In this document: positions 2,024 to 15,989 of the stretch, piece after piece
Layout of the letters: each line of letters opens with the position of its first letter
Numbering within the stretch: the stretch's first letter is position 1
Assembly (NCBI GenBank): GCA_030599175.1
Contig: JAUVON010000021.1
Location: forward strand, 1 to 17,268
Origin: Desulfobulbaceae bacterium
Lineage (GTDB): Bacteria > Desulfobacterota > Desulfobulbia > Desulfobulbales > Desulfocapsaceae
Length of the DNA: 17,268 bases
Direction: 5' to 3'
Position numbers and translations under genes: made by a program
Notes under the pieces: generated by a model
Told to the model about the DNA's origin: nothing
The model's input: the letters and a program-made list of their open reading frames with translations, nothing else
Database searches by the model: none

Positions 2024-2080
2024 AGTAAATCTTCTCGACACCCTCACTCTTTAACCATTTCATGACAATCTTCTGTCAGA

Positions 2081-2203
2081 TTGATTCATAAAAAACTTCA
2101 TATACGAGGCGCGTAAATATCCTATTATTTCGGCGTACTAAGGTACGTCGTAATGATAGGATATTTATAGCAACGAAGGATATGGAGAGTTTTTAGGAAT
2201 CAA
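2081..2203. repeat. Palindromic intergenic repeat, copy 1
   Basis: This 123-bp imperfect palindrome lies between convergent genes. Its outer arms are TTGATTCATAAAAA at the left and, on the other strand at the right, TTGATTCCTAAAAA. The inner stem pairs AAATATCCTAT (2115-2125) perfectly with ATAGGATATTT (2156-2166), and GGCGTAC/GTACGTC sits near the tip. The right edge ends at the stop codon of the minus-strand stress-protein gene. A second copy lies at 6856-6982. No coding capacity is seen. It could act as a bidirectional terminator for the two flanking genes, or be a MITE- or REP-like element. Confidence 0.9.
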
Positions 2204-2599
2204 TCACTTTTTGACAGTGGTGACAGGGCAGGGAGCCTTCAAAATAACATATCGTGAGGTGGAGCCTAAAAGAATCTTCTCGACCCTGGATCTTTTCTTT
2301 ATACCAAGAAAGATATGGTCAATTTCATTGTCTTCAGCAAATTGGACAATATCTTCACCGGATGAAAGCCCTCTGACGCTTTGCTGCACATCGCATTGCA
2401 CTCCTGCATCTTCCATCATTTTTTTGGCAAAAACAAGACCTTCTTCTGCTTTTCTGATGTCGGATGCCTTCTCAGATGAGCCTCCCTCAAGCGAGGTGAT
2501 GACATAGACAAAAGCATTGTATGTTTTTGCATAATCCCTGGCGAGGGACAGTGCTGTTGCGCCTACTTCTCCACCATTATATCCAACCAGTATCTTCAC
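2204..2599 (-). CDS. Universal stress protein, UspA family
   Basis: The 131-residue protein has the usual length of a single-domain universal stress protein. It opens with the typical beta strand KILVGYNGG and ends with the nucleotide-loop region GIKKRSRVEKILLGSTS followed by VILKAPCPV. The ATP-binding consensus G-x2-G-x9-G(S/T) is only partly kept: the second glycine is Lys, so ATP binding is uncertain. The start codon is GTG at 2599, supported by AGGAG six bases upstream. It begins 22 bp after the LivF-type ATPase and is probably the last gene of the transporter operon. Stress-protein genes often sit beside solute transporters, where a regulatory role is suspected; any such role here is inferred. 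Confidence 0.88.
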   Translation of the reverse strand: MKILVGYNGGEVGATALSLARDYAKTYNAFVYVITSLEGGSSEKASDIRKAEEGLVFAKKMMEDAGVQCDVQQSVRGLSSGEDIVQFAEDNEIDHIFLGIKKRSRVEKILLGSTSRYVILKAPCPVTTVKK

Positions 2600-2621
2600 A
2601 ATGAACTCCTGAGTTCTCAGT

Positions 2622-3428
2622 TTACATCCAGCGTTTACGTCGTTTATATGATTTTACATCTTTAAAGGATTTTCTGCCACCTCCCTGTGTAATTCCCATA
2701 TAAAATTCCTTAACATCGGGGTTGTCCTGCAGTTCTTCAGATGGACCTTCCATTACAATTTTACCGGATTCCATGATATAGGCATAATCAGATACGGCTA
2801 AAGCGACTTTGGCATTTTGCTCAACAACCAGTATGGTTGTATCAAGTTCTTTGTTAATGAGTTTTATATTATCAAAGATTTCTTTTACCAGTAAGGGGGC
2901 AAGGCCAAGGGACGGCTCATCCAGCATCAGCATTTTAGGAGCAGCCATCAATGCCCTTGCTATGGCGATCATCTGCTGTTCACCGCCGGAGCTGTACCCT
3001 GCCATTCGATTGGTTACTTTTGAAAGCCTTGGGAAATGTTTATACATCATTTCATTGTCTTCACGGATTTTTCTGGCCCCGTCTTTTCTGGTTATGGAAC
3101 CGACCAGGATATTCTCATTCACGGTCAGGTGTTTGAAAACACGCCTGCCTTCAGGAACCATAACGGATCCTAATTTTACAACATCCGTCCCAAGCATTTT
3201 TGTTGTATCCGTACCGTCAAATTTTATATAACCTTCCTTTATGGCACCGTTTTCCGGTTTTAGGAGACCGCTGATGGCTCTTAGTGTGGTAGTTTTGCCT
3301 GCACCGTTTGTGCCGAGCAAAGCGACAATACTTCCCTCGGGGACGCTGAGGCTGACACCACGCAGAACCTGAATGATATCATTATAGACAACTTCAATAT
3401 TATTGACTTCAAGCAGATTGTTTTCCAT
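2622..3428 (-). CDS. livF: Branched-chain amino acid-type ABC transporter ATPase, LivF-like, with basic C-terminal tail
   Basis: The 268-residue cytoplasmic ATPase belongs to the LivF family of the HAAT importers. Walker A GTNGAGKT is at residues 39-46, the Q-loop equivalent at about 90-94, signature SSGGEQQ at 146-152 and Walker B MLMLDEP at 166-172. VVEQNAK occupies the H-loop site, with Gln in place of His as usual in LivF. The protein is about 30 residues longer than a typical LivF because of a basic tail containing KSFKDVKSYKRRKRW. It would pair with the LivG-type ATPase at 8901-9662 and the two permeases to power uptake. The ATG at 3428 has only a weak Shine-Dalgarno, AAAGAAAG. A perfect hairpin separates it from the upstream binding-protein gene. 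Confidence 0.92.
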   Translation of the reverse strand: MENNLLEVNNIEVVYNDIIQVLRGVSLSVPEGSIVALLGTNGAGKTTTLRAISGLLKPENGAIKEGYIKFDGTDTTKMLGTDVVKLGSVMVPEGRRVFKHLTVNENILVGSITRKDGARKIREDNEMMYKHFPRLSKVTNRMAGYSSGGEQQMIAIARALMAAPKMLMLDEPSLGLAPLLVKEIFDNIKLINKELDTTILVVEQNAKVALAVSDYAYIMESGKIVMEGPSEELQDNPDVKEFYMGITQGGGRKSFKDVKSYKRRKRWM

Positions 3429-3448
3429 ATGGCTTTCTTTGTTTTCGT

Positions 3449-3488
3449 CTTAACCTGCCGAAAACAGTATGGTTTCCGGCAGGTTAAG
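3449..3488 (-). promoter_or_regulatory. Perfect 12-bp stem-loop between binding-protein and LivF genes
   Basis: CTTAACCTGCCG (3449-3460) is exactly complementary to CGGCAGGTTAAG (3477-3488). Three further A-T pairs extend into the loop past a one-base bulge. Neither side is followed by a run of T, so it does not look like a simple intrinsic terminator. Between a binding-protein gene and a downstream ATPase gene, such a stem could stabilise the upstream mRNA against 3' decay and keep binding-protein levels high. That role is inferred from position. Confidence 0.7.
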
Positions 3489-3512
3489 GTTCATCGTAGT
3501 CAAGAGTTGAAT

Positions 3513-4745
3513 TTACTTGATTTTTGTCATGTATTCAGACTGGATAGGCTCACCGACCTTCTTGAATGCACCATCCTGTACACTGTAAATCTGCAGCGCA
3601 TCAACACCAGCACGGTCAGTTTCTGAATAGGTTACAGGTCCTATGGTGGTATATGGTGAATAACTATTTTTACCATTCATACCATTCAGGGTTTTGTAAA
3701 GGTTTTCTTTATTGATCTCAAGACCGGCATCCTTAGCCCTCTTGATGGCTTCCGTTGCTACCTGGGCTACCATGATTCCTGCCGCATAATTATGGGAGTT
3801 TGCTGCTTTATCATCCCGACCATACTTTTTGGCCAGGGCAAGTTGTTTTGTGGTTCCTTCATTCTTTTCCGAAGTCAGGTTAAAGGAGCAGGTCCAGACA
3901 TATCCTTTACAGGCGTCGCCGGCGAGGGCAATCAAATCATTTCCGCCGGTATAATGAACTCCGAGAAAAGTCAGTTTCCCTGCTTCGCCGTAAGAACCGG
4001 CGGTAAGACCAAGACGTGCTGAGTCTTTAAGCATTGTTGCAACAGGAGACTGTACTGTATGGCTGAGAACATACTGAACGTCTTTACTCATCAACCTTTT
4101 AAGCATGGCTGAGTTATCAAGATCTTTACCATGTTCAACTACTTCAACAATCTCCATGTTCAAACCTGCCGCAACCGCTTTTTTAGCATCATCAACAGGT
4201 CCCCGGCCAAATGCTGACGGATGGATAAACATGGCAACTTTCGCTTTTCCTTCTCCTTTGTGATTTTTTACAACGTACTCAGACAGGGCAACCAGCTGTT
4301 CCGAATAGGATGCTACCGGCAGGAAGATATAGTTTGAATCATCCAGGTTTCCAGCATGGTAGGAAGCAGGAAGGACAGCAATTTTCTCTTCCTCAAAATC
4401 CCTTTTCAAGCCCAGGGTGCTGCCTGTTGAATAGTTGAGATACATGACAATGCCATCGTCAAGATACTCTTCAAAGTTTCTTTTAGTGATATCAGTTTTA
4501 TACTGATCATCCCTGATGGTACAGTCGATGGTGTCATCACCCAGCATTTTTGTTTCATTTACAAATTTAAAATAATCTTCAGTACCCTTGGCGTATGGGT
4601 TGCCTGCATCCGATGTCGGTCCGGTAATGGCAAGGGACATACCAAGTTTGTAAACCTTTCCACCTGCATTTGCTGTTGCGGTAAATGCAAACATTACGGC
4701 AAGAACCAGTAATGCGTTTAGGAACAAGACGTTTTTGTTTTTCAT
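3513..4745 (-). CDS. Periplasmic substrate-binding protein of a HAAT/Liv-type ABC transporter
   Basis: From the ATG at 4745 the protein has 410 residues. That start is chosen because GGAGGAGAAG precedes it closely and because it opens a clean signal peptide: MKNKN, a hydrophobic stretch of about 17 residues, then TATANA before Gly-Gly. The frame stays open upstream as far as 4889, but that would place 48 non-signal residues first and run towards the permease gene. The mature part starts YKLGMSLAITGPTSDAG, typical of the type I periplasmic fold of LivK-like receptors (Peripla_BP_6), and continues through two lobes of normal total length. It would capture the imported solute outside the membrane. 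Its ligand cannot be read from sequence. The neighbouring acyl-CoA synthetase hints at a carboxylic acid rather than an amino acid. Confidence 0.9.
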   Translation of the reverse strand: MKNKNVLFLNALLVLAVMFAFTATANAGGKVYKLGMSLAITGPTSDAGNPYAKGTEDYFKFVNETKMLGDDTIDCTIRDDQYKTDITKRNFEEYLDDGIVMYLNYSTGSTLGLKRDFEEEKIAVLPASYHAGNLDDSNYIFLPVASYSEQLVALSEYVVKNHKGEGKAKVAMFIHPSAFGRGPVDDAKKAVAAGLNMEIVEVVEHGKDLDNSAMLKRLMSKDVQYVLSHTVQSPVATMLKDSARLGLTAGSYGEAGKLTFLGVHYTGGNDLIALAGDACKGYVWTCSFNLTSEKNEGTTKQLALAKKYGRDDKAANSHNYAAGIMVAQVATEAIKRAKDAGLEINKENLYKTLNGMNGKNSYSPYTTIGPVTYSETDRAGVDALQIYSVQDGAFKKVGEPIQSEYMTKIK

Positions 4746-4815
4746 GTTTCTTCTCCTCCAGAGTTTTGGGTTAGCTGCTGCATTTGTAACCAAAATATAT
4801 TGAGGTAAATCTACC

Positions 4816-5910
4816 TTAATACCGGAATGGCCACTTCTTGGTATACGATTTGGCGATTCTCCACCAGTTTGCAATTCCCCTTGGTTCAAACATTAAAAAG
4901 AGTACAATAACCAGACCAAAGGTGAAAGGTTTCAGCGCTGTCGCAAGATTCATGCTTGACGGCAGGTATTGTCCTGCAAGTTCAGCAAGACTCTCAACTT
5001 GCAGATCGAGAAATTTAATGGCGACCGGCCCCCAGAAACACCCGTTCAATGTTCCCAGTCCTCCGACAATGGCCATAGCCAGGTAGCCAATGGATTCATG
5101 AAGGGTAAAGGATTCAAATCCCACGCCTCTATAGAGGTAGGCGTGCAGAGCACCTGCCACTCCTGCAAAAAAACCTGATAAAGCAAAGGCATACACCTTG
5201 GTGAGTCCGGGGTTCATTCCCATGGCATCTGCGGCCCGGTCATTGTCTCTAACGGCGATAAGGGATCTGCCATATCTGGTTTTAAGCAGGTTCCTGATGC
5301 CAAATCCCAGGATGACTACAACAGTTAGAATGACAAAATACCAGAACACATAATGATCCTTTCGTCCAACTTTTCCGGTAAACCAGAAAACCCGGCCGAC
5401 AAAAATGGTCTGCCCCTGGTTGAAAAATGACATAAAATTGATGACCCATTGGAAAATCATCTGAAATGAGAGGGTGGCGATGGCAAGGTAAAGGTGCTTC
5501 AACCTCAGTGCCGGTAAACCGACAATTGCGCCAAATATCGCCCCCATGAAACCGCTGAAGATGATCAGCAATGGCCAGAAATGGGTAATTATAATATGAG
5601 AATCACCGATTGTCCGGCAGAAAGATGCGACAGTGTAGGCACCTATGCCGACGAAAGCTGCATGGCCTATAGAGATGAGGCCTGCAAATCCGGTGACAAG
5701 ATTCAGACCCATGACAGCCACAATAGCGATGAGAATATTATCAATCACCAGCATGGATTTGTTGCTCAGTTCAAACAGCAGGGGCCAGCCAAAGAGAAGA
5801 ACGAGAAACAGAGTAAAAAATGACTGGTCCAGATTTGTAAGAAATGTCCTCTGTTCCTGTTTGTAAGTAGTAAAGAAATTTCCTGTTGCTAACCATTTAT
5901 TTGCTGACAT
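4816..5910 (-). CDS. livM: Branched-chain amino acid-type ABC transporter permease, LivM-like
   Basis: The 364-residue, highly hydrophobic protein has the LivM pattern. A cytoplasmic N-terminus of about 30 residues is followed by many membrane segments. LNLVTGFAGLISIGHAAFVGIGAY is the conserved early region, and TRYGRSLIAVRDNDRAADAMGMN is the cytoplasmic coupling loop that contacts the ATPases. GGLGTLNGCFWGP and MFEPRGIANWW are further conserved late motifs. The ATG at 5910 lies 3 bases after the stop of the LivH gene, which suggests translational coupling; GAGCGAG in the end of that gene may serve as its ribosome site. It forms the membrane channel with LivH. Confidence 0.93.
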   Translation of the reverse strand: MSANKWLATGNFFTTYKQEQRTFLTNLDQSFFTLFLVLLFGWPLLFELSNKSMLVIDNILIAIVAVMGLNLVTGFAGLISIGHAAFVGIGAYTVASFCRTIGDSHIIITHFWPLLIIFSGFMGAIFGAIVGLPALRLKHLYLAIATLSFQMIFQWVINFMSFFNQGQTIFVGRVFWFTGKVGRKDHYVFWYFVILTVVVILGFGIRNLLKTRYGRSLIAVRDNDRAADAMGMNPGLTKVYAFALSGFFAGVAGALHAYLYRGVGFESFTLHESIGYLAMAIVGGLGTLNGCFWGPVAIKFLDLQVESLAELAGQYLPSSMNLATALKPFTFGLVIVLFLMFEPRGIANWWRIAKSYTKKWPFRY

Positions 5911-5913
5911 AGA

Positions 5914-6807
5914 TTACACTCGCTCAATTTCGTGAACTCCAAATAACCCATGGGGTTTAAATAGAAGTATAATTAATAAAATAATATAGGGCATAACATC
6001 ACCCGTTCCATTCAAACCCCAATTTCCATCAAGATATCCACTGGCAAACTGCTGGATCAGTCCCATGATGATTCCGGCAACGACTGCCCCGAGGATTGAA
6101 TCAAGCCCACCAAGAATAACCACAGGAAATACAATTATTCCAAATGAATGCAAGGTGTCAAAATTCAGTCCTGTAATGTTACCGATAATACATCCAGCCG
6201 CAGCAGCAGACAGTCCTGCCGTTGCCCAGGCGAGTCCAAACACCCTCGGTACGGAGATACCCACAGACATAGCCCCAAACTGGTCGTCAGACACGGCCCT
6301 CATGGATATTCCAACGGTGGACTTTTTAAAAAACCAGGAGAACCCGCCAATTAAGAGAAAGGTTATTATAACCCCAGAAAGCTGTGTCCAGGAAATGGAG
6401 ACACCGCCAAGAGTCAGTGGTGCCTGGGGAAGAAATTGAGGAAAAGAGTAATTCTCGGTGCCAAACGGAGTCAGATAAATCAAGCCGTCAATAATCGACC
6501 CTAAGCCGATTGTGACCATAATAACCGAAATTATGGGCTCACCAATAAGACGTCGCAGGAAAATCCTTTCAACACTCATGGCAAGAAAAAAAGTGATGAC
6601 CATACTTGCCAGAAAAGAGAAGAAAATTGGTATCCCTACCGTTACAGTCAAAAAATAGGTGATGAAAGCACCTGCCGCAATAATTTGTCCATGGGCAAAG
6701 TTTGCAACCCGGCTGGATTTATAAACCAGTACAAGGCCCAGAGCCGCCAGCGCATAAATTGATCCCACCACCACACCGCTTACCACAATTTGAAAAAAAT
6801 AACTCAT
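5914..6807 (-). CDS. livH: Branched-chain amino acid-type ABC transporter permease, LivH-like
   Basis: The 297-residue integral membrane protein has the LivH signature features. The N-terminal region GVVVGSIYALAALGLVLVYKSSRVANFAHG is near diagnostic for LivH. AVSDDQFGAMSVGISVPRVFGLAW is the coupling loop, and VVILGGLDSILGAVVAG is a conserved late helix. ATG at 6807 is preceded by GGAGTCTG, a good ribosome site. It ends 3 bases before the LivM start. Upstream lie 162 bases holding the second palindromic repeat, separating it from the acyl-CoA synthetase of the same cluster, so transcription into livH may be modulated there. Confidence 0.93.
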   Translation of the reverse strand: MSYFFQIVVSGVVVGSIYALAALGLVLVYKSSRVANFAHGQIIAAGAFITYFLTVTVGIPIFFSFLASMVITFFLAMSVERIFLRRLIGEPIISVIMVTIGLGSIIDGLIYLTPFGTENYSFPQFLPQAPLTLGGVSISWTQLSGVIITFLLIGGFSWFFKKSTVGISMRAVSDDQFGAMSVGISVPRVFGLAWATAGLSAAAAGCIIGNITGLNFDTLHSFGIIVFPVVILGGLDSILGAVVAGIIMGLIQQFASGYLDGNWGLNGTGDVMPYIILLIILLFKPHGLFGVHEIERV

Positions 6808-6855
6808 CAGACTCCTTCCACTGTATAATGGTTTCTCTTAAAACCTGATTTGTCA

Positions 6856-6982
6856 GATGGGTTTGTAAAAAACTTTATATCCGAGGCGCGTAAATTTTCT
6901 ATTATTTTGGCGTACTTTAGTACGTCGCAATGATAAAAAATTTATAGCAACGAAGTATATGAAGGAATTTTACGAATCCATC
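6856..6982. repeat. Palindromic intergenic repeat, copy 2
   Basis: This 127-bp imperfect palindrome matches the element at 2081-2203 along its whole length, including shared blocks GAGGCGCGTAAAT, GGCGTACT, GTACGTCG and TTTATAGCAACGAAG. Inner arms are AAATTTTCTAT (6892-6902) and ATAAAAAATTT (6933-6943). Two base-pair positions differ from copy 1 on both sides so that pairing is kept. The right edge supplies the final codons (Met-Asp-Ser) and the stop of the acyl-CoA synthetase gene. It separates that gene from livH and may cause partial termination or mRNA processing. Confidence 0.9.
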
Positions 6983-8895
6983 ACTGTGTAAAAGTTAATA
7001 CTTGCCTCTCCCGTTGTTGACTGGCCGTCCTGGTACTGAATGGAGGCTTCAAGATCTTTTTTGTCAACTGATTCGTCATAAAGTGCTTCGTATAGATGCT
7101 GGTATCTTTCCTGTACAAATTTACGACGAATTTTTCCGGTTTTTGTCAACTCCCCATCATCAACATCAAGTAGTTTATAAAGCAGCGCAAAGCGTTTAAT
7201 TTTAAAATGTTCTTTTTCGGCCCGTGAATTGACATCCAGCACCTGTTCCATCATAAGCTCGGCGACTTCAGGTTTACCTGAAAGATCCATATAGGTGGTA
7301 TAGGAAATACCCTTATCCTCCGCCCATTTGCCAACCACAATAGGATCAATATTGATCAGGCATGAAACAAAGTCCTCTTTGTTGCCAAAAATAATTGCTT
7401 CTTTAATAAACGGGCTGAATTTGAGAGAATTTTCCAGGAACTGAGGAGAAAACATCTCTCCTTTATTGCTGTGCATCACATCTGAAAGACGGTCGATGAC
7501 CACAAGATGACCGTGTTCATCTATAAACCCGGCGTCTCCTGAATGGAGCCATCCACCCTCGAGCACTTCTTCCGTTTTTTCAGGCAGATTATAATATCCC
7601 GGTGAAACAGAGGCTGATTTTGACAGAATTTCCCCGTCTTCAGCAATTTTACATTCCGTACCGGGTAATGGTTTGCCAACTGTCTCTGGTCTGATGTCTC
7701 CATCACGATGCATATAGGCAATACCGGTGATTTCGGTCTGTCCGTAAATCTGTTTCAAGTTCACCCCGATTGCCTGGTAAAAGGTAAAGAGTTCAGGTCC
7801 AAGAGCGGCGCCACCGGTATAGGCACGTCTCAGACGCATAAGACCTATCTGATTGACAAGAGGTCGAAGTATGAGTTGAGTGCCCAGCCATGATTTGATT
7901 TTTAAGCCAAGGGGCATGGGTTTTCCTACCATTCTGTATTCTGCAGAATTCAGCCCTATCTTTATGAAATAATTGTAGAAAAGTTTATTCAGCCAGTAAG
8001 ATTGGTCTATTTTCAGCCAGATTTCAGAGCGGATTGTTTCGTAAATTCTGGGAGCACCAAACATGAAGTGAGGGCCAATCTCTTTGAGATCAGACATGGC
8101 CGTTTCAACAGATTCGGGGAAGTTAATGGTGATTCCGGTTGCCATGGCAACTCCGAAGGAGTTCATCTGCTCACCGATCCAGGCAAAGGGTAGAAAAGAG
8201 ACATATTCATCTGTAGATTCCAGTGGATCAACCTCGGTGATTCTTACCCCCATGTTGATATAATTCCTATGGGTCATCATGGTTCCCTTAGGGAGCCCTG
8301 TTGTACCTGATGTGAGACAAAGGTGACACACATCATCAGGCTTTCCCAGGTCAACCAGGGTTTCAAAAAGATCAGGATTATCTTCGTATTTTTTCTCACC
8401 AAGTTCGTAAAGGTCCTTAATGTCGATGAACCAGTCATCCGACATATACTCTCTCATGCCCCTGGGATCTTCAAAAATGACTTTTTTAACGTTTGGGATC
8501 TGATCCCGTACTTCAAGAACTTTATCCACCTGCTCCTGGTTGTCACAAAATACCGCACTGACCTTAAGATATTGAATGATCTGGGCAATTTCATCCGGCA
8601 TGCTGGTTTGATAAATACCTGCGGAAATGGCACCGAGGCAATGCCCGCCTATGGCTACAAACAACAGTTCAGGGATATTATCGCTGATAATTGCAATGGT
8701 ATCTTCTTTGCCAAGACCTATTGTCCTAAGACCAAGGGCAGTTTTCCTGACATAGTCATAATAATCTTCCCATGTATAGGTGTTCCATATCCCGAAATCT
8801 TTTTCTCTGAGTGCCGGCCGTTTTGGTGTGCTGTTAACTCGCCAGCGAAGCAATTGGGGGATAGAGTATTCAAGCAGGTGGTCTTTTGTGCTCAT
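6970..8895 (-). CDS. Long-chain-type acyl-CoA synthetase (AMP-forming) embedded in a Liv-type transporter cluster
   Basis: The 641-residue protein matches the long-chain fatty-acid/AMP-forming ligase family in length and motifs. These are LTSGTTGLPKGTMMTHRN at residues 194-211, AYTGGAAL at 358-365, IYGQTEITG at 383-391, WLHSGDAGF at 449-457, VVIDRLSDVM at 465-474, and TKTGKIRRKF at 584-593 with the adenylation lysine at 588. All catalytic elements are present, unlike the ligase at 521-2023. The expected reaction is carboxylate + ATP + CoA to acyl-CoA + AMP + PPi. ATG at 8895 lies 5 bases after the LivG-type stop, with AGGA inside the upstream gene, so translation is coupled. The position inside a transporter operon suggests it activates the imported acid. 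Fatty, aromatic and other acids are all possible. The last three codons fall in the palindromic repeat. Confidence 0.92.
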   Translation of the reverse strand: MSTKDHLLEYSIPQLLRWRVNSTPKRPALREKDFGIWNTYTWEDYYDYVRKTALGLRTIGLGKEDTIAIISDNIPELLFVAIGGHCLGAISAGIYQTSMPDEIAQIIQYLKVSAVFCDNQEQVDKVLEVRDQIPNVKKVIFEDPRGMREYMSDDWFIDIKDLYELGEKKYEDNPDLFETLVDLGKPDDVCHLCLTSGTTGLPKGTMMTHRNYINMGVRITEVDPLESTDEYVSFLPFAWIGEQMNSFGVAMATGITINFPESVETAMSDLKEIGPHFMFGAPRIYETIRSEIWLKIDQSYWLNKLFYNYFIKIGLNSAEYRMVGKPMPLGLKIKSWLGTQLILRPLVNQIGLMRLRRAYTGGAALGPELFTFYQAIGVNLKQIYGQTEITGIAYMHRDGDIRPETVGKPLPGTECKIAEDGEILSKSASVSPGYYNLPEKTEEVLEGGWLHSGDAGFIDEHGHLVVIDRLSDVMHSNKGEMFSPQFLENSLKFSPFIKEAIIFGNKEDFVSCLINIDPIVVGKWAEDKGISYTTYMDLSGKPEVAELMMEQVLDVNSRAEKEHFKIKRFALLYKLLDVDDGELTKTGKIRRKFVQERYQHLYEALYDESVDKKDLEASIQYQDGQSTTGEASINFYTVMDS

Positions 8896-8900
8896 TTCTG

Positions 8901-9662
8901 TTAATCCTCTCCAATATAGGCTTCAATAACTTTAGGATTCTTGGCAATTTCTTCTGGTGTACCGGAACCGATGACTTCTCCAAAATCAAGAACATATATT
9001 CGATCGGAAATATCCATGACAACACCAAGGTCATGTTCCACAAGCACCACTGTAATGTTTCGTTCTTTCTGAATATCCATGACAAACCGGACAATATCTT
9101 CTTTTTCCTCTTGATTCATCCCTGCCATCGGTTCGTCTAAAAGCAGGATGTCAGGTGCCAGAGTTAACGCACGGGCCACTTCAACTTTCTTCTGGACACC
9201 GTAACTTAAGTTGCCAACAAGGCTTTTTCGGTAGGGCTCCAGTTCCATAAAATCAATGATACTCTCTACATAGCCCCTGTTCTCAGCTTCAACTCTGGAT
9301 GCTTTGCCGAGAAAGAAGACAGCGTGGAGAAAGCTGTATTTTAAATTCTGGTGGCGGGCCAAAAGCAGGTTGTCCAAAACTGAAAGACCGGAAAAAAGCT
9401 CGAGGTTTTGAAATGCTCTTGCGATCCCCATGCTTGATACCTGGTGGGGGGAGGCGTGGGTCAGCTTTTTTTCCTTGTAATAAATATCGCCCTGGGTTGG
9501 ATGATAAAAACCTGATATGCAGTTAAGCATGCTGGTTTTACCGGCGCCGTTGGGACCAATAATAGAGGTGATTAATCCCGGCTCAATCTTCATGTCCACA
9601 TGGGAGAGGGCCTTAAGTCCACCAAAAGAGAGGGTTACGTCTGAAACATTTAGATATGCCAT
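8901..9662 (-). CDS. livG: Branched-chain amino acid-type ABC transporter ATPase, LivG-like
   Basis: From ATG at 9662 the protein has 253 residues, a normal LivG length. The frame extends a further 34 codons upstream, but the extra residues are Cys- and Phe-rich with no family resemblance, and the usual LivG start (LNVSDVTLSFGGLKAL) follows directly after this Met. Walker A is GPNGAGKTS at 36-44, signature LSYGVQKKVEVARAL at 152-166, Walker B ILLLDEP at 172-178 and the switch histidine is His210 in VEHDLGVV. The late sequence GEVIGSGTPEEI is also typical. It pairs with the LivF-type ATPase. It is the first gene of the cluster and is followed after 5 bases by the acyl-CoA synthetase. The ribosome site is weak (GAG). 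Confidence 0.93.
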   Translation of the reverse strand: MAYLNVSDVTLSFGGLKALSHVDMKIEPGLITSIIGPNGAGKTSMLNCISGFYHPTQGDIYYKEKKLTHASPHQVSSMGIARAFQNLELFSGLSVLDNLLLARHQNLKYSFLHAVFFLGKASRVEAENRGYVESIIDFMELEPYRKSLVGNLSYGVQKKVEVARALTLAPDILLLDEPMAGMNQEEKEDIVRFVMDIQKERNITVVLVEHDLGVVMDISDRIYVLDFGEVIGSGTPEEIAKNPKVIEAYIGED

Positions 9663-9817
9663 ATAAACAAGAGTCTCAATGTTGAAGAAGGGAAGGTGCG
9701 TAGCTAAACAATTTAATGTAATTTTTAAATAGCAATATTTGCAACATGTAAAAAAAATACGCAAGTAAAAACTTTGAGCAAGATCCTACTGTGTGACAAT
9801 TCAAAGAGGCTCTGTGG
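9663..9817 (-). promoter_or_regulatory. Candidate promoter region for the transporter cluster
   Basis: This 155-bp AT-rich gap precedes the LivG-type gene and follows the acetoacetyl-CoA synthetase stop. On the minus strand TTGCAA, 18 bases, then TACATT make a plausible but imperfect sigma-70-like pair. No hairpin terminator or palindromic operator is evident, and the TTAAGACTTAA site found elsewhere in the window is absent. This suggests that the transporter is not under the same operator, though readthrough from upstream cannot be excluded. Confidence 0.35.
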
Positions 9818-11767
<1,950 letters not shown>

Positions 11768-11838
11768 TACCTTCCTCTCAGTTGACTCCTGTTCGCAAAA
11801 ACCTTCAGGTAACTTTCCTTCCTCCGCTCATGCTCCTA

Positions 11839-11873
11839 GGAGAACACAGTCCGACTAGCCGGGTCAGTTCTCC
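11839..11873 (-). promoter_or_regulatory. Hairpin between regulator and acetoacetyl-CoA synthetase genes
   Basis: GGAGAAC (11839-11845) pairs with GTTCTCC (11867-11873), enclosing CCGACTAGCCGG, itself a 12-base palindrome with one mismatch. On the minus strand, in the direction of the flanking genes, no T run follows, so it is not a clear terminator for them. On the plus strand TTTTT follows, but no plus-strand gene ends here. It may act as an mRNA processing or attenuation structure between the regulator and the enzyme. Confidence 0.5.
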
Positions 11874-11890
11874 CTTTTTAAAATTTTGCG

Positions 11891-12433
11891 TTAAAGCGTT
11901 CCGACCCACAACACGAAACTACGCTCCGTGCTGTTGTTGGTAATCTTCTGACTCTCCGGTTTAGACCAGTAATGCGCTGCGTCACCTTCAACCATGCTAA
12001 GAATTTCATCACTTAACACCAGCTCTATGGACCCTTTCAGAACACAGAGCACTTCCTGGCCATTTTTTATATTTTTTCTTGCGGGAATTGAACGTCCTGG
12101 TTCAATAACCAAAATGGATGAATCAATTATGGATCTGTAATCAGGTGGAAAGAATCGCCGGGTGACAAAACCTATATGCGACAAATCTATGTCATCCCAT
12201 TCCGCCTTTTTTATGAGTACAGCCTTTTTTTGTTTACTCATTTGGGAAAGAATATCGCCTGCATCAGCACCAATGGCCTGGCAAATCCGTATCAGTGTGT
12301 CCACTGACGGCGAATTCACATCATTTTCCACCTGGCTTAAAAAACCCTCTGAAACAGATGCCTTCTCTGCAACTTTTTTAAGGGTTAAGCTCCGATCCTT
12401 CCTGTATTTCCTGATGATGGTACCTATATGCAT
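11891..12433 (-). CDS. XRE-family transcriptional regulator with C-terminal cupin domain
   Basis: The 180-residue protein joins an XRE helix-turn-helix with a cupin-2 ligand domain, the layout of SutR/PuuR-type regulators. The helix-turn-helix (about 5-60) includes IRKYRKDRSLTLKKVAEKA and SVSEGFLSQVENDVNSPS; the cupin (about 95-178) includes GQEVLCVLKGSIELVL and VEGDAAHYW. The HxH metal ligands of classic cupins are missing, so the pocket probably binds a small molecule without metal. ATG at 12433 is the start, with only a weak ribosome site (GGCAG). Its promoter holds the palindrome with core TTAAGACTTAA, also found before the acyl-CoA dehydrogenase, so autorepression is likely. Acetoacetyl-CoA synthetase lies downstream on the same strand. 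The effector may be a related acid or CoA ester, which is inference only. Confidence 0.88.
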   Translation of the reverse strand: MHIGTIIRKYRKDRSLTLKKVAEKASVSEGFLSQVENDVNSPSVDTLIRICQAIGADAGDILSQMSKQKKAVLIKKAEWDDIDLSHIGFVTRRFFPPDYRSIIDSSILVIEPGRSIPARKNIKNGQEVLCVLKGSIELVLSDEILSMVEGDAAHYWSKPESQKITNNSTERSFVLWVGTL

Positions 12434-12454
12434 ACTGCCATAGTCGCTTTTTCA

Positions 12455-12542
12455 TTAAGATTTCATATAAGTTAAGACTTAATTTATGTTAAATATTAAC
12501 AAGAAGTCAACATTAAAATGGACTGGTTGTGATAATTTTTGG
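12455..12542 (-). promoter_or_regulatory. Promoter/operator block, copy A (XRE-cupin regulator)
   Basis: This 88-bp block aligns without gaps to 14703-14790 with about 80% identity. On the minus strand a -35 box TTGACT (12505-12510) is followed after 16 bases by CATAAA (12483-12488). A 21-bp palindrome at 12467-12487, core TTAAGACTTAA, overlaps the -10 box and has a single mismatched pair. That placement suggests repression by blocking RNA polymerase. The block fills the gap between the second regulator's stop and the first regulator's leader. Confidence 0.75.
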
Positions 12543-12543
12543 A

Positions 12544-13182
12544 TTACTTCCCGTAAAGTACAGCAAGTATACTGGTTTTCCCCTTTCTTGAGGTAATAAG
12601 GTGTGGAGTTGTGGAAAGGTAATAAACACTGTCACCTGGATTTAAGTCGTAAACATCATCGCCGATTTTAAACAGTGCTGTACCGTTTAAAACAAAAATA
12701 AATTCCTCTCCGTCGTGGACAGACATCTCTCCATCTCTATTCTCTTCAAGCTGAACAATAAAGGATTCCATATGCCTGCCCTTGACGTCTGGAGCAAGCG
12801 ATTTGTATTGATAGAGAGGTTTGCCATCTTTTTGTGATGTGGATCCAAGCACGTTTTTTTGCTCACCATGCCTTGTAATAGAATAAAGGCAATTTCCTTC
12901 ACCGGATACAATTCTTCCAAAAGCACTATCAAGAGCTTTTGATAGCTTCATTACAGTCCCAAGCTGTGGTTTCAGAGAACCGCTTTCAATATTTAGAAGT
13001 CTTTTCGATGAAAACCCGGTCATTTTGGACAACTCTTCAATCGAAACTCCTTTCTCTTCTCTTAACTCCTGTATTCGTTTTCCTACTTCCTTTACATTTT
13101 TTTCTTCCTGAGTGTTTATTTCACCAGTAAGATCTTCAAAAAAGTCAACATTATCATAGGGGTTTTTGTCGTCAGGAATCAT
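12544..13182 (-). CDS. Second XRE-family regulator with C-terminal cupin domain
   Basis: The 212-residue protein has an acidic N-terminal extension of about 33 residues. An XRE helix-turn-helix at about 34-92 contains GKRIQELREEKGVSIEELSK and FSSKRLLNIESGSLKP. A cupin at about 130-210 contains VHDGEEFIFVLNGTALFKIG and LNPGDSVYYLSTTPHLI. Its cupin keeps more of the classic His/Glu motif than the neighbouring regulator's, so metal binding is possible. The two regulators share architecture but little sequence, so they are not a recent duplication. ATG at 13182 has GAGGAG seven bases upstream. It ends just before promoter block A. Its own upstream region holds a large palindromic element and no copy of the TTAAGACTTAA operator. 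The target is unknown, and acyl-CoA or acid metabolism nearby is plausible. Confidence 0.87.
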   Translation of the reverse strand: MIPDDKNPYDNVDFFEDLTGEINTQEEKNVKEVGKRIQELREEKGVSIEELSKMTGFSSKRLLNIESGSLKPQLGTVMKLSKALDSAFGRIVSGEGNCLYSITRHGEQKNVLGSTSQKDGKPLYQYKSLAPDVKGRHMESFIVQLEENRDGEMSVHDGEEFIFVLNGTALFKIGDDVYDLNPGDSVYYLSTTPHLITSRKGKTSILAVLYGK

Positions 13183-13237
13183 GGCAACTCCTCAATTAAG
13201 TTGTTTTATGAAAGTCTCCATTAAAGCAGGATAGACC

Positions 13238-13397
13238 AGGAGGCTGTCCGAGAATAAGGATTTTGTTCAAAATCGAGGTTTTCCAAAAAAATAAGCACAG
13301 CCATATACTTGATATCGGAGTCTACGCTTACCTGCGAGCATTATTTTTTTGAAAATAACGAAGAGTTTGGATAAAATGCATTCTCGGACAGGCTCCT
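13238..13397. repeat. MITE-like palindromic element with AGGAGsCTGTCCGAGAAT ends
   Basis: This 160-bp segment between the acyl-CoA dehydrogenase stop and the second regulator's start has 18-bp terminal inverted repeats. They are AGGAGGCTGTCCGAGAAT at 13238-13255 and its complement at 13380-13397, with one mismatch. Further arm pairing includes ATTTT, CAAA and AAAAAAATA. The centre carries GAGTCTACGCTTA, nearly identical to a stretch in the element at 15804-15989. No ORF is seen. It looks like a non-autonomous repeat and could end dehydrogenase transcription. Confidence 0.85.
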
Positions 13398-13415
13398 AGG
13401 ACTTTCATTTTGTTA

Positions 13416-14564
13416 TCAGCAGCCTATGTGACGTGAAATCACAATTCGTTGAATTTCAGATGTACCTTCTCCTATATCGAGTAGCTTCTGATCACGGTAG
13501 AAACGTTCCACATCATATTCTTTCATAAGTCCGTATCCGCCATGGATCTGAACAGCATGGTTAGCTACACGTCCCATAACCTCAGAGCAGTATAGTTTTG
13601 CCATTGCAGCTTCTTTTTCATACGGTCTTCCTTCATTTTTGAGCCAGCAGGCTTTATAGAGAAGGTTTCTTGCACATTCTATTTCAATGGCACAATCGGC
13701 AAGTTTAAATGCAATGGCTTGAAATTTACTGATTGGCTGATCAAACTGTTTTCTCTGCTTAGCATATTTGAGAGCCTGTTCATAAGCTCCCTGAGCCCCG
13801 CCAAGGCCCATGGCACCAATGGAAAGTCTTCCACCGTCAAGAGTTTTCAGCATCTGATGGAAACCGTCACCTTTGTTTCCCAATAAATTTTCTTTTGGAA
13901 CACGTACATTGTCGAAATACAGTTCGGCTGTATTTGATGCTCTCCACATCATTTTTTTATGCATCGTAACAGCTTTAAATCCTTTAGTTCCACTCTCAAC
14001 GATGAAACAGGAATATTCCGGTTTGCCGTTATCCTTTGTTCCTGTAATAGCCTGAACAGTAACTCCAAGCGTAAGATCGCAGGAAGCATTGGTTATGAAT
14101 ATTTTTGATCCATTGATTATCCAGTCATCACCATCCTGCTTTGCGGTTGTGGTGCTCCCACCCGCATCTGAGCCAGCGGTAGGCTCAGTTAAGCCAAATC
14201 CCCACAGGTAGTTGCCACTGCATAATTTTGGCAGATATTTTTGTTTCTGTTCTTCGGTTCCGAAATAGTATAGAGGGCCTATGCCCAGAGAATTTCCTGC
14301 CGCAACCGTTGCTGCCTGGGAGCCATCTACTCTTGCAAGTTCTTCAACTGCGATGATGTATGAGATGTAATCCATTCCCTGACCTTCATACTCATCTGAG
14401 ACAAACATGCCGAAAAGACCGATTTCCCCCATCTTTTTTGTTATTTCAACAGAAAACTCCTCCTTTTCGTCAAGTTCAGTTGCTACAGGGGCAATTTCCT
14501 TTTTGGCAAATTTTCTGACTTCTTTTTGGATCATTTTCTGTTCTTTAGATAAATCGAAGTTCAA
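13416..14564 (-). CDS. Acyl-CoA dehydrogenase (short/medium-chain type flavoprotein)
   Basis: The 382-residue length is standard for soluble acyl-CoA dehydrogenases. Conserved features are the flavin/substrate stretch GFGLTEPTAGSDAGGS, the following IINGSKIFITNA, the helical region RKQFDQPISKFQAIAFKLAD and the C-terminal IGEGTSEIQRIVISRHIG. The last holds the likely catalytic base, Glu366, at the short/medium-chain (MCAD-like) position. It oxidises an acyl-CoA to the 2-enoyl-CoA and passes electrons to an electron-transfer flavoprotein. Chain specificity cannot be read; butyryl-, glutaryl- or branched-chain acyl-CoA remain possible. The start is TTG at 14564, with GGAG six bases upstream and no in-frame ATG nearby. 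Its upstream region holds promoter block B, implying control by an XRE-cupin regulator in this window. Confidence 0.94.
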   Translation of the reverse strand: MNFDLSKEQKMIQKEVRKFAKKEIAPVATELDEKEEFSVEITKKMGEIGLFGMFVSDEYEGQGMDYISYIIAVEELARVDGSQAATVAAGNSLGIGPLYYFGTEEQKQKYLPKLCSGNYLWGFGLTEPTAGSDAGGSTTTAKQDGDDWIINGSKIFITNASCDLTLGVTVQAITGTKDNGKPEYSCFIVESGTKGFKAVTMHKKMMWRASNTAELYFDNVRVPKENLLGNKGDGFHQMLKTLDGGRLSIGAMGLGGAQGAYEQALKYAKQRKQFDQPISKFQAIAFKLADCAIEIECARNLLYKACWLKNEGRPYEKEAAMAKLYCSEVMGRVANHAVQIHGGYGLMKEYDVERFYRDQKLLDIGEGTSEIQRIVISRHIGC

Positions 14565-14994
14565 AATATTCTCCTTTTCTTTTCATGTTGGACATAATGC
14601 CCTACGGGCAGGCGGAAGGTTTTAGGCTAACAGCCCTCAGGTTGTCTTTTTCCGACACATTGAAAACAGATGTATGTTGCATACTGTTACGGTTCGGCTG
14701 TGTTAAGATTTTATATAAGTTAAGACTTAATCTATATTAGACCTTGATAAGAAATCAACATTTAAATAGACTAGCGGTGATTTTTTTTGGGAAAAGCCTG
14801 CTGAGTCGTCACTATGCGTAGGAACCCAGTCCCCTGGGCGATTGTTGCTCCTTTGCAAAATGTCGATTTAAATTGTGTTTATGGCTGAGTTTCATACGTA
14901 ATCAGAAAAGAAAATAGCACCAACAATTTAAGCATAAACTCACGGTTATGTCTTTGTATGGAAAAAAGTAAAAAGGTTCTAAGGGGACAATCCA
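14565..14994. other. 430-bp intergenic region with promoter block B
   Basis: This gap separates the dehydrogenase start from the methyltransferase stop. It holds promoter/operator block B at 14703-14790, about 139 bases above the dehydrogenase start, leaving a long leader. The leader includes a small GCCC-TAC-GGGC hairpin near 14609-14619. Between 14791 and 14994 there is a weak CCCAG/CTGGG hairpin near 14826 and otherwise AT-rich sequence in which I see no gene. Confidence 0.6.
14703..14790 (-). promoter_or_regulatory. Promoter/operator block, copy B (acyl-CoA dehydrogenase)
   Basis: This block aligns gap-free with 12455-12542. On the minus strand TTGATT (14753-14758) is followed after 16 bases by TATAGA (14731-14736). 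The palindrome at 14715-14735 keeps the core TTAAGACTTAA and overlaps the -10 box, with two mismatched pairs in its outer arms. The conservation reaches beyond the promoter and operator, suggesting duplication of the whole control region. Confidence 0.75.
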
Positions 14995-15803: not shown

Positions 15804-15989
15804 TGAAAGTTATGTTTGATAAACTCGTAAAAACCTCCGTGCTCCGTCATTCCCGCGCAGGCGGGAATCCAGAACGTATTTAAATGACTGGATCGAAGTC
15901 TACGCTTATCTCCCGCCTGCGCGGGAATGACGAAATGGCGAAATATTTAAGTTTTTACGACGCCATCATGTTTACTTTAATAACTTTCA
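15804..15989. repeat. Large palindromic repeat with GCGCAGGCGGGAAT arms
   Basis: This imperfect palindrome of about 186 bp has nested arms. TGAAAGTTAT (15804-15813) pairs with ATAACTTTCA (15980-15989), TCGTAAAAAC (15825-15834) with GTTTTTACGA (15951-15960), and CGTCATTCCCGCGCAGGCGG with its complement near 15912-15933. The CATTCCCGC-GCGGGAATG type of arm is common in proteobacterial intergenic repeats. The right side reads TTTTTACGAcgCCATCA, resembling the end of the copy-2 element at 6971-6983. It lies between the methyltransferase start and the malate dehydrogenase stop. Confidence 0.85.

What the first reader, a model, noticed from the sequence alone, without database searches (positions are those of the whole stretch)
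12455..14790. Duplicated 88-bp promoter/operator block links an XRE-cupin regulator to an acyl-CoA dehydrogenase
Segments 12455-12542 and 14703-14790 align gap-free over 88 bp at about 80% identity. Both lie directly upstream of minus-strand genes and hold a -35/-10 pair and a palindrome (core TTAAGACTTAA) overlapping the -10 box. The arms are 21 bp long, nearly perfect in copy A. This predicts a local regulon of regulator, acetoacetyl-CoA synthetase and dehydrogenase, with the regulator at 11891-12433 as the likely autorepressor. The operator is not one I recognise.
Basis: partly seen in the sequence, partly recalled or inferred. Interest (0 to 1): 0.75.

Follow-up and report, generated by a model that had tools for sequence, protein, structure and literature searches.

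The report
Duplicated operator of an XRE-cupin regulon
Two copies of one switch-like promoter, very probably the control site of the XRE-cupin regulator gene that follows the second copy, put an acyl-CoA dehydrogenase and an acetoacetyl-CoA synthetase operon under the same control, and a similar three-part switch stands before this regulator in many sulfate reducers and some spirochaetes.

Summary
In detail: 12455-12542 and 14703-14790 match at 72 of 88 positions, are the only two copies found in the draft genome, and each precedes a minus-strand gene. The reading also holds in the main and can be extended. Comparison assigns the block to the regulator at 11891-12433 (XC1), not to the second XRE-cupin (XC2). 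All 17 genomes with an XC1 ortholog (of 58 searched, own included) carry the operator before XC1. Two congeners with the dehydrogenase and XC2 but no detected XC1 show no operator. In 19 genomes, 46 of 46 model hits (E<=0.05) lie at XC1 promoters, block B or a thiolase pair. The operator is three AATATT-type palindromes at a 17-bp pitch across the core promoter, seen also in Spirochaetes MAGs. Enzyme roles persist while genes are swapped: block B carries a dehydrogenase where the XC1 operon has none of its own, and a thiolase pair replaces the operon thiolase in 7 of 17 genomes (own operator copy in 4, apparently a shared one in 2, unread in 1). Binding, repression and ligand are inferred, not shown. 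This is a new member of the known kind of local XRE-cupin regulators.

The parts
12455..12542 (-). Block A: promoter/operator of XC1 and the acetoacetyl-CoA synthetase genes behind it
   Evidence: 82% identical to block B; model hit 12450-12512, E 1.3e-13
12505..12510 (-). -35 box TTGACT of copy A
12488..12500 (-). Operator O1 of copy A, GTTAATATTTAAC, between -35 and -10
12483..12488 (-). -10 box CATAAA of copy A, 16 bp from the -35
12471..12483 (-).
   Evidence: right half-site TTAA invariant in 21 of 21 aligned sites; left half-site TTAA in 17 of 21, with G020, G023, G025 (TAAA) and G032 (ATAA) differing
12454..12464 (-). Operator O3 of copy A, GAAATCTTAAT; O1-O2 and O2-O3 centres are 17-18 bp apart because O2 is one base wider than in most other genera
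14703..14790 (-). Block B: second copy of the promoter/operator, upstream of the acyl-CoA dehydrogenase
   Evidence: found before this gene in G000, G001, G002 and G005 among 58 genomes
14753..14758 (-). -35 box TTGATT of copy B
14736..14748 (-). O1 position of copy B, degenerate (ATCAAGGTCTAAT)
14731..14736 (-). -10 box TATAGA of copy B
14719..14731 (-). Operator O2 of copy B, ATTAAGTCTTAAC
   Evidence: inside a 40-bp run identical in the four B copies
14702..14712 (-). Operator O3 of copy B, AAAATCTTAAC
11891..12433 (-). XC1: XRE-cupin regulator, proposed autorepressor and cognate regulator of both blocks
   Evidence: Pfam HTH_3 5.5e-11, Cupin_2 7.5e-4 and below its cut-off; operator co-occurs with it
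12544..13182 (-). XC2: second XRE-cupin regulator, behind the dehydrogenase on the same strand; disfavoured as cognate regulator
   Evidence: Pfam Cupin_2 8.9e-12, HTH_19 6.6e-10
13416..14564 (-). Acyl-CoA dehydrogenase behind block B
   Evidence: Pfam Acyl-CoA_dh domains; best NCBIfam match acryloyl-CoA reductase AcrC, 414 bits, below its cut-off 640
9818..11767 (-). Acetoacetyl-CoA synthetase, next gene after XC1
   Evidence: TIGR01217, 924 bits, cut-off 521
2204..9764 (-). LivG, AMP-ligase, LivH, LivM, binding protein, LivF, Usp: further genes on the same strand, possibly read from block A (not tested)
   Evidence: order; ligase, binding protein and Usp scanned; LivF, LivG, LivH and LivM named by likeness from recall, not scanned

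Best explanation
Both blocks are the operator-promoter of XC1. XC1 dimers bind three AATATT-type palindromes spaced about 17 bp apart that cover the region from the -35/-10 spacer to about +20, and so keep RNA polymerase off. Release would come when the cupin domain binds a ligand, perhaps an acyl-CoA or a 3-oxo acid. XC1 thereby represses itself, the acetoacetyl-CoA synthetase genes behind it and, through block B, the acyl-CoA dehydrogenase-XC2 pair. Block B arose by duplication of the XC1 promoter in an ancestor of four species of this genus, and put an incoming dehydrogenase under the control that the XC1 operon's own dehydrogenase has in related genera. Shown: sequence, conservation, co-occurrence, spacing, specificity within genomes. 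Inferred: binding, repression, ligand, history.
For: XC1 orthologs (68-100% identity) occur in 17 of 58 genomes, own included, and the promoter-operator stands before 17 of 17. In a model search of the 58 genomes the best hit of each of the 17 is its XC1 promoter or block B, E 2.4e-7 to 3.9e-15; in the other 41 the best E is 0.0065. With laxer filters, 46 of 46 hits at E<=0.05 in 19 genomes fall on XC1 promoters (17 genomes), block B (4) or the DNA before a thiolase pair (4: G005, G017, G031, G036), which was not in the training set. G003 and G004 hold the dehydrogenase (83%) and XC2 (56-57%), no XC1 ortholog and no operator. G025 and G035 have XC1 and operator but no XC2-like protein at E<=1e-20. 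11 XC1 genomes have another dehydrogenase downstream of XC1, the four block-B species have theirs behind block B, and 2 contigs end too early. Wider set: 46 of 57 dereplicated XC1 upstream regions reach score 7 in leave-one-out, against 8 of 515 upstream regions of other ORFs and 160 of 2850 first-order resampled sequences. Anchored on the middle site, AATATT (<=1 mismatch) sits at -17 in 30 of 52, at 0 in 44 of 52, at +17 in 31 of 51, and at no other offset from -45 to +34 in more than 7.
Against: No binding or expression data. The PWM was seeded by hand and refined on the same 57 rows, so 52 of 57 is optimistic; in leave-one-out 11 of 57 fail. R1 at E<=0.01 finds 21 of 56 orthologs outside the training genomes (my count). 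The genome searches scored only the best 90 or 150 candidates per genome, so weaker sites could be missed. Between E 0.05 and 1, one search lists scattered weak hits, taken as noise and not examined. XC1 absence in G003 and G004 rests on drafts, 87% and 72% complete. Cupin_2 is below its gathering score. O1 is degraded in block B and the G001 copy has a weak -35 (TTGCTT). L197:4607-4646 (E 0.0057) is unexplained. Not every XRE-type regulator of such genes represses: LfsT of P. aeruginosa is reported to raise fatty-acid degradation genes, among them a probable acyl-CoA dehydrogenase (PMC9769523, passages seen).
Confidence: 0.8

Rival explanations
1. XC2, which lies between the two blocks, is the regulator that binds them.
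For: XC2 sits between the blocks, behind the dehydrogenase; XC2-like proteins (35-40%) stand divergently beside XC1 in G007, G008 and G036, and 8 of the 10 other XC1 genomes searched have some XC2-like protein at 35-40%.
Against: Close XC2 orthologs (90-95%) were found only in the species with block B; of the other XC1 genomes, 10 of 10 searched lack one above 40%, and G025 and G035 have none at E<=1e-20, yet all carry the operator (G017, G031 and G032 were not searched for XC2). G003 and G004 have XC2 at 56-57% next to the dehydrogenase and no operator.
Confidence: 0.06
2. XC1 activates from these sites rather than repressing.
For: Sign cannot be read from sequence with certainty; an XRE-type regulator, LfsT, raises fatty-acid degradation genes in P. 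aeruginosa (PMC9769523, passages seen).
Against: The three palindromes lie from the -35/-10 spacer to downstream of the start, where a bound protein should block polymerase. The six P. aeruginosa XRE-cupins with determined targets all inhibit transcription (PMC7901475, section 7 read).
Confidence: 0.1
3. Block B is a neutral relic of a segmental duplication, or a mobile repeat, with no regulatory role.
For: Its O1 is degenerate and the G001 copy has a weak -35, TTGCTT.
Against: Only two copies in the genome. B is kept upstream of the same gene in four species, with a 40-bp run over -10, O2 and O3 identical in all four, although XC1 of G000 and G001 differ at 14% of residues. A true dispersed element lies nearby and behaves quite differently (at least 43 matches in the genome).
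Confidence: 0.06

Closest known systems
XRE-cupin local repressors of Pseudomonas aeruginosa (PsdR, PauR, ErfA, PA0535, PA1359, PA1884, PA4987; Trouillon et al. 2021, PMC7901475, outline and sections 7 and 10 read)
   Same: XRE helix-turn-helix plus cupin, palindromic sites in the core promoter, few targets, enzyme genes next to the regulator
   Different: Other target pathway; three phased palindromes per promoter here, of which the sections read make no mention; DNA motifs were not compared letter by letter. XC1's cupin stretch has invariant R119, K120 and K123 where, from recall, metal cupins have HxH
Lambda-type multi-site operators (OR1-OR3; recalled, not tested)
   Same: Several tandem palindromes of one HTH repressor overlapping a promoter
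   Different: 17-bp pitch, cupin effector domain, no phage switch
LiuR, FadR and PsrA-type regulators of acyl-CoA catabolism (recalled, not tested)
   Same: Control of acyl-CoA dehydrogenase, ligase and thiolase genes
   Different: From recall those are MerR, GntR and TetR proteins; XC1 is XRE-cupin

Membership tests
XRE-cupin transcription regulators | N-terminal XRE-type HTH | tested here: met
   HTH_3 42.8 bits against cut-off 23
XRE-cupin transcription regulators | C-terminal cupin domain | tested here: inconclusive
   Cupin_2 E 7.5e-4, 19.6 bits, below cut-off 27.2; AF2 model (mean pLDDT 77.2, pTM 0.51) has nine strands after residue 70 and a stretch 82-96 below pLDDT 50; fold search not accepted
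XRE-cupin local repressors | Palindromic site within the core promoter of targets | tested here: met
   in silico only:
XRE-cupin local repressors | Few targets, near the regulator gene | tested here: met
   1 to 3 operator-bearing promoters per genome in 17 genomes, adjacent to or within about 8 kb of XC1, except the G005 thiolase pair on another contig
XRE-cupin local repressors | Inhibits transcription of targets | not testable with these tools
   needs mutant RNA or in vitro transcription
Dispersed repeat / MITE | Many copies in the genome | tested here: not met
   two copies

The most novel reading that the evidence does not exclude
XC1 heads an old regulon spread over Desulfobacterota and Spirochaetota, with three operators at a 17-bp pitch in its promoter. 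Its enzyme roles (acyl-CoA dehydrogenase, thiolase, acetoacetyl-CoA or acyl-CoA ligase) are kept while the genes that fill them are replaced by non-orthologs. Newcomers are enrolled by copying the operator in front of them: block B for the dehydrogenase, a further operator for the thiolase pair.
Probability: 0.55. Interest if true: 0.65.

Novelty: new member of a known kind. Interest (0 to 1): 0.5.

Why it matters
It gives an XRE-cupin subfamily of anaerobes, for which my paper searches found no study, a testable operator, a target list and a predicted sign. It also offers a clear natural case in which promoter duplication goes with gene replacement inside a regulon, so that roles rather than genes are conserved. 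The fixed 17-bp spacing of three palindromes makes cooperative binding directly testable by gel shift.

Tried and rejected
Dispersed repeat: rejected, two copies. XC2 as the regulator: disfavoured by co-occurrence. Single palindrome as the full operator: replaced by the triplet. A first scan for TTAA-N2,3-TTAA alone was too narrow: 19 of 73 upstream regions against 3.4 expected, because the wider family prefers GTAAATATTAAC. Leucine-degradation reading of the dehydrogenase: in G003 it is followed by XC2, a carboxyltransferase and an enoyl-CoA hydratase, but the nearest carboxyltransferases in the own genome are only 35% identical to that one, so the substrate stays open.

Print: five motif strings gave 14 papers. 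Of the four that concern bacteria or binding-site prediction, three hold a string in a primer or a listed sequence (PMC9871927, PMC7920481, PMC13119179; passages) and PMC13145115 showed none in its main text; the other ten were judged unrelated from titles in the listing. Searches returned no paper. One search returned PMC9769523 (LfsT, passages seen). One search returned six papers, among them PMC7901475 (read in part) and PMC10965056 (PsdR, listing only). One search listed nothing on point among the ten shown. The library holds only open-licence papers.

Rows dropped: 71 upstream regions became 57 after removing short, N-bearing and >=70% similar ones; 5 of the 57 (L153, L163, L166, L168, L175) scored below 7 and were left out of the offset counts; L199-L202 (24-30% identical) were left out of the wide set (4 of 73 loci).
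Full report
What is there. The window is one whole contig (C229) of a draft genome of 2.9 Mb in 430 contigs, 86.8% complete. Two congeners have contigs of the same length as named MAG contigs (G002 and DEIL01000064.1, 57,222 bases; G005 and MAXH01000223.1, 7,762 bases; both titled Desulfobulbaceae), so the window most likely belongs to the Desulfobulbales; this is inferred. On the minus strand the order is dehydrogenase, XC2, XC1, acetoacetyl-CoA synthetase, then an ABC-transporter set with an AMP-ligase and Usp. Block B stands before the dehydrogenase, block A between XC2 and XC1. The blocks agree at 72 of 88 positions and the match stops sharply at both ends.

Chance. The second copy has E 1.1e-18 in the own genome and no third was found. 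The 21-bp pattern with up to 3 mismatches occurs nowhere else in it.

Whose operator. XC1 orthologs were sought in 58 genomes: own, congeners, family and order. 17 have one at 68% identity or more; an 18th (G003) has only a weak 27% match. Each of the 17 carries a promoter in which GTTAA-N2,3-TTAAC-like DNA overlaps the -10 to start region; in G008 and G024 the -35 is poor (TTTTCA). A sequence-only profile, R1, was built from these 17 plus the four block B copies. In the 58 genomes R1 has its top hit in each of the 17 at the XC1 promoter or block B; the best hit in the 41 others is E 0.0065 in G055. With laxer filters on 19 genomes 46 of 46 hits at E<=0.05, both strands counted, belong to XC1 promoters, block B, or the DNA before a thiolase pair in G005, G017, G031 and G036 (gene contexts). 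XC1 and B sites were training data; the four thiolase sites were not. Both searches scored only the best 90 or 150 candidates per genome.

Why XC1 and not XC2. G003 and G004 hold the dehydrogenase (83%) next to XC2 (56-57%) but have no XC1 ortholog and no operator hit. Both are drafts, so XC1 may be unassembled, but the DNA before their dehydrogenase is read and lacks the site (in G003 only 194 bp remain before the contig end). Conversely G025 and G035 have XC1 and operator but no XC2-like protein at E<=1e-20.

Operator anatomy. Titles name Desulfobacterota of several groups and Spirochaetes (L155, L161, L164, L167, L169, L177). R1 at E<=0.01 hits just upstream of XC1 in 21 of the 56 others. 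A 14-mer profile of the form RGTAAATATTAACY reaches score 7 in 52 of 57 dereplicated upstream regions, 46 in leave-one-out; five Spirochaetes rows are among the 52, the sixth locus (L169) is masked there. Controls: 160 of 2850 first-order resampled sequences and 8 of 515 upstream regions of other ORFs reach 7. Of those 8, three are block B copies, two lie at the thiolase pair (L151, L154), one before an AMP-ligase-like gene (L174) and two have no known link (L180, L194). Anchored on the 14-mer, AATATT with at most one mismatch occurs 17 bp upstream in 30 of 52, in the middle in 44 of 52, 17 bp downstream in 31 of 51 and 34 bp downstream in 6 of 50; the largest count at any other offset is 7. 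The flanking sites were no part of the 14-mer. So there are three palindromes: O1 in the -35/-10 spacer, O2 over the -10 edge and start, O3 downstream. In the window copy A has all three, with O2 one base wider than in most other genera; copy B has O2 and O3 and a degenerate O1.

Regulon logic. In relatives XC1 is often followed on the same strand by a thiolase (PRK06365 type), a protein with a weak ChsH2-type zinc-ribbon match, often an acyl-CoA ligase, acetoacetyl-CoA synthetase and a dehydrogenase of another type, 33-37% identical to the window's. The thiolase was found at the XC1 locus of 10 of 17 genomes; the other 7 (own, G005, G008, G017, G024, G031, G036) have a two-gene thiolase pair instead, which was found in none of the 10. 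Absence of the operon thiolase was checked genome-wide only in G000 and G005 of those 7. Of the 7, four have an operator of their own before the pair; in G024 the pair is divergent from XC1 over one operator; in G008 an XC2-like gene and the pair run divergently from the XC1 operator; in the own genome the pair is cut by a contig end. The dehydrogenase follows the same rule: 11 genomes have one downstream of XC1, the four block-B species have a non-orthologous one behind block B and none downstream of XC1 in the stretch read, and two contigs end too early (the rest of those four genomes was not searched for the other type). Relatives of the window's dehydrogenase (62-78%) do occur at XC1 loci of more distant groups, downstream of XC1 or divergent from it; in L189 it stands with an XC2 (57%) divergently beside XC1. 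In the wide set 33 of 38 loci with at least 4 kb downstream and 2 kb upstream have some dehydrogenase next to XC1 (25 downstream, 5 divergent, 3 in tandem upstream); two of the five without (L138, L152) have it beyond the 5-kb flank.

Mechanism. Three sites across the core promoter argue for repression by occlusion. The kind is known: the six P. aeruginosa XRE-cupins with measured targets inhibit transcription, bind in core promoters and mostly act next to their own genes (PMC7901475, sections 7 and 10 read). Against a blanket rule, the XRE-type regulator LfsT is reported to raise fatty-acid degradation genes (PMC9769523, passages). The ligand is unknown; the invariant R119, K120 and K123 in the cupin stretch would suit an anionic ligand, which is a guess.

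Verdict. The finding is a real, conserved, very probably autoregulatory operator whose duplication enrolled a second transcription unit. It is a new member of a known kind; the phased triple operator and gene replacement under a copied operator are what a specialist would find fresh.

Noticed in passing
window 13228-13405: MITE-like element with inverted ends (GGCTGTCCGAGAAT) between the dehydrogenase and XC2; at least 43 matches in the own genome and matches in 7 of 7 genomes of the genus searched, own included. G001, G002 and G005 lack it at this place, so it probably inserted here recently.
   Followed up: yes
window 2074-2218 and 6851-6995: 145-bp repeat at 81% reaching over the 3' ends of the Usp gene and of the AMP-ligase gene, the first copy with a 25-bp-arm inverted repeat; the second is also present at the same place in G002. 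Perhaps a terminator or other 3' element.
   Followed up: partly
window 15820-15957: REP-like inverted repeat with TCCCGCCTGCGCGGGA arms between the methyltransferase and malate dehydrogenase genes.
   Followed up: no
window 11768-11890: The thiolase and zinc-ribbon genes that stand here in G001, G002 and G006 are missing at this place in the own genome and in G005; the thiolase was not found elsewhere in either draft.
   Followed up: yes
window 14565-14702: The leader between block B and the dehydrogenase start (138 bp) is about twice as long as in G002, apparently through an insertion.
   Followed up: no
L197:4607-4646: R1 hit at E 0.0057 about 350 bp upstream of XC1 that no gene assignment explains.
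   Followed up: no
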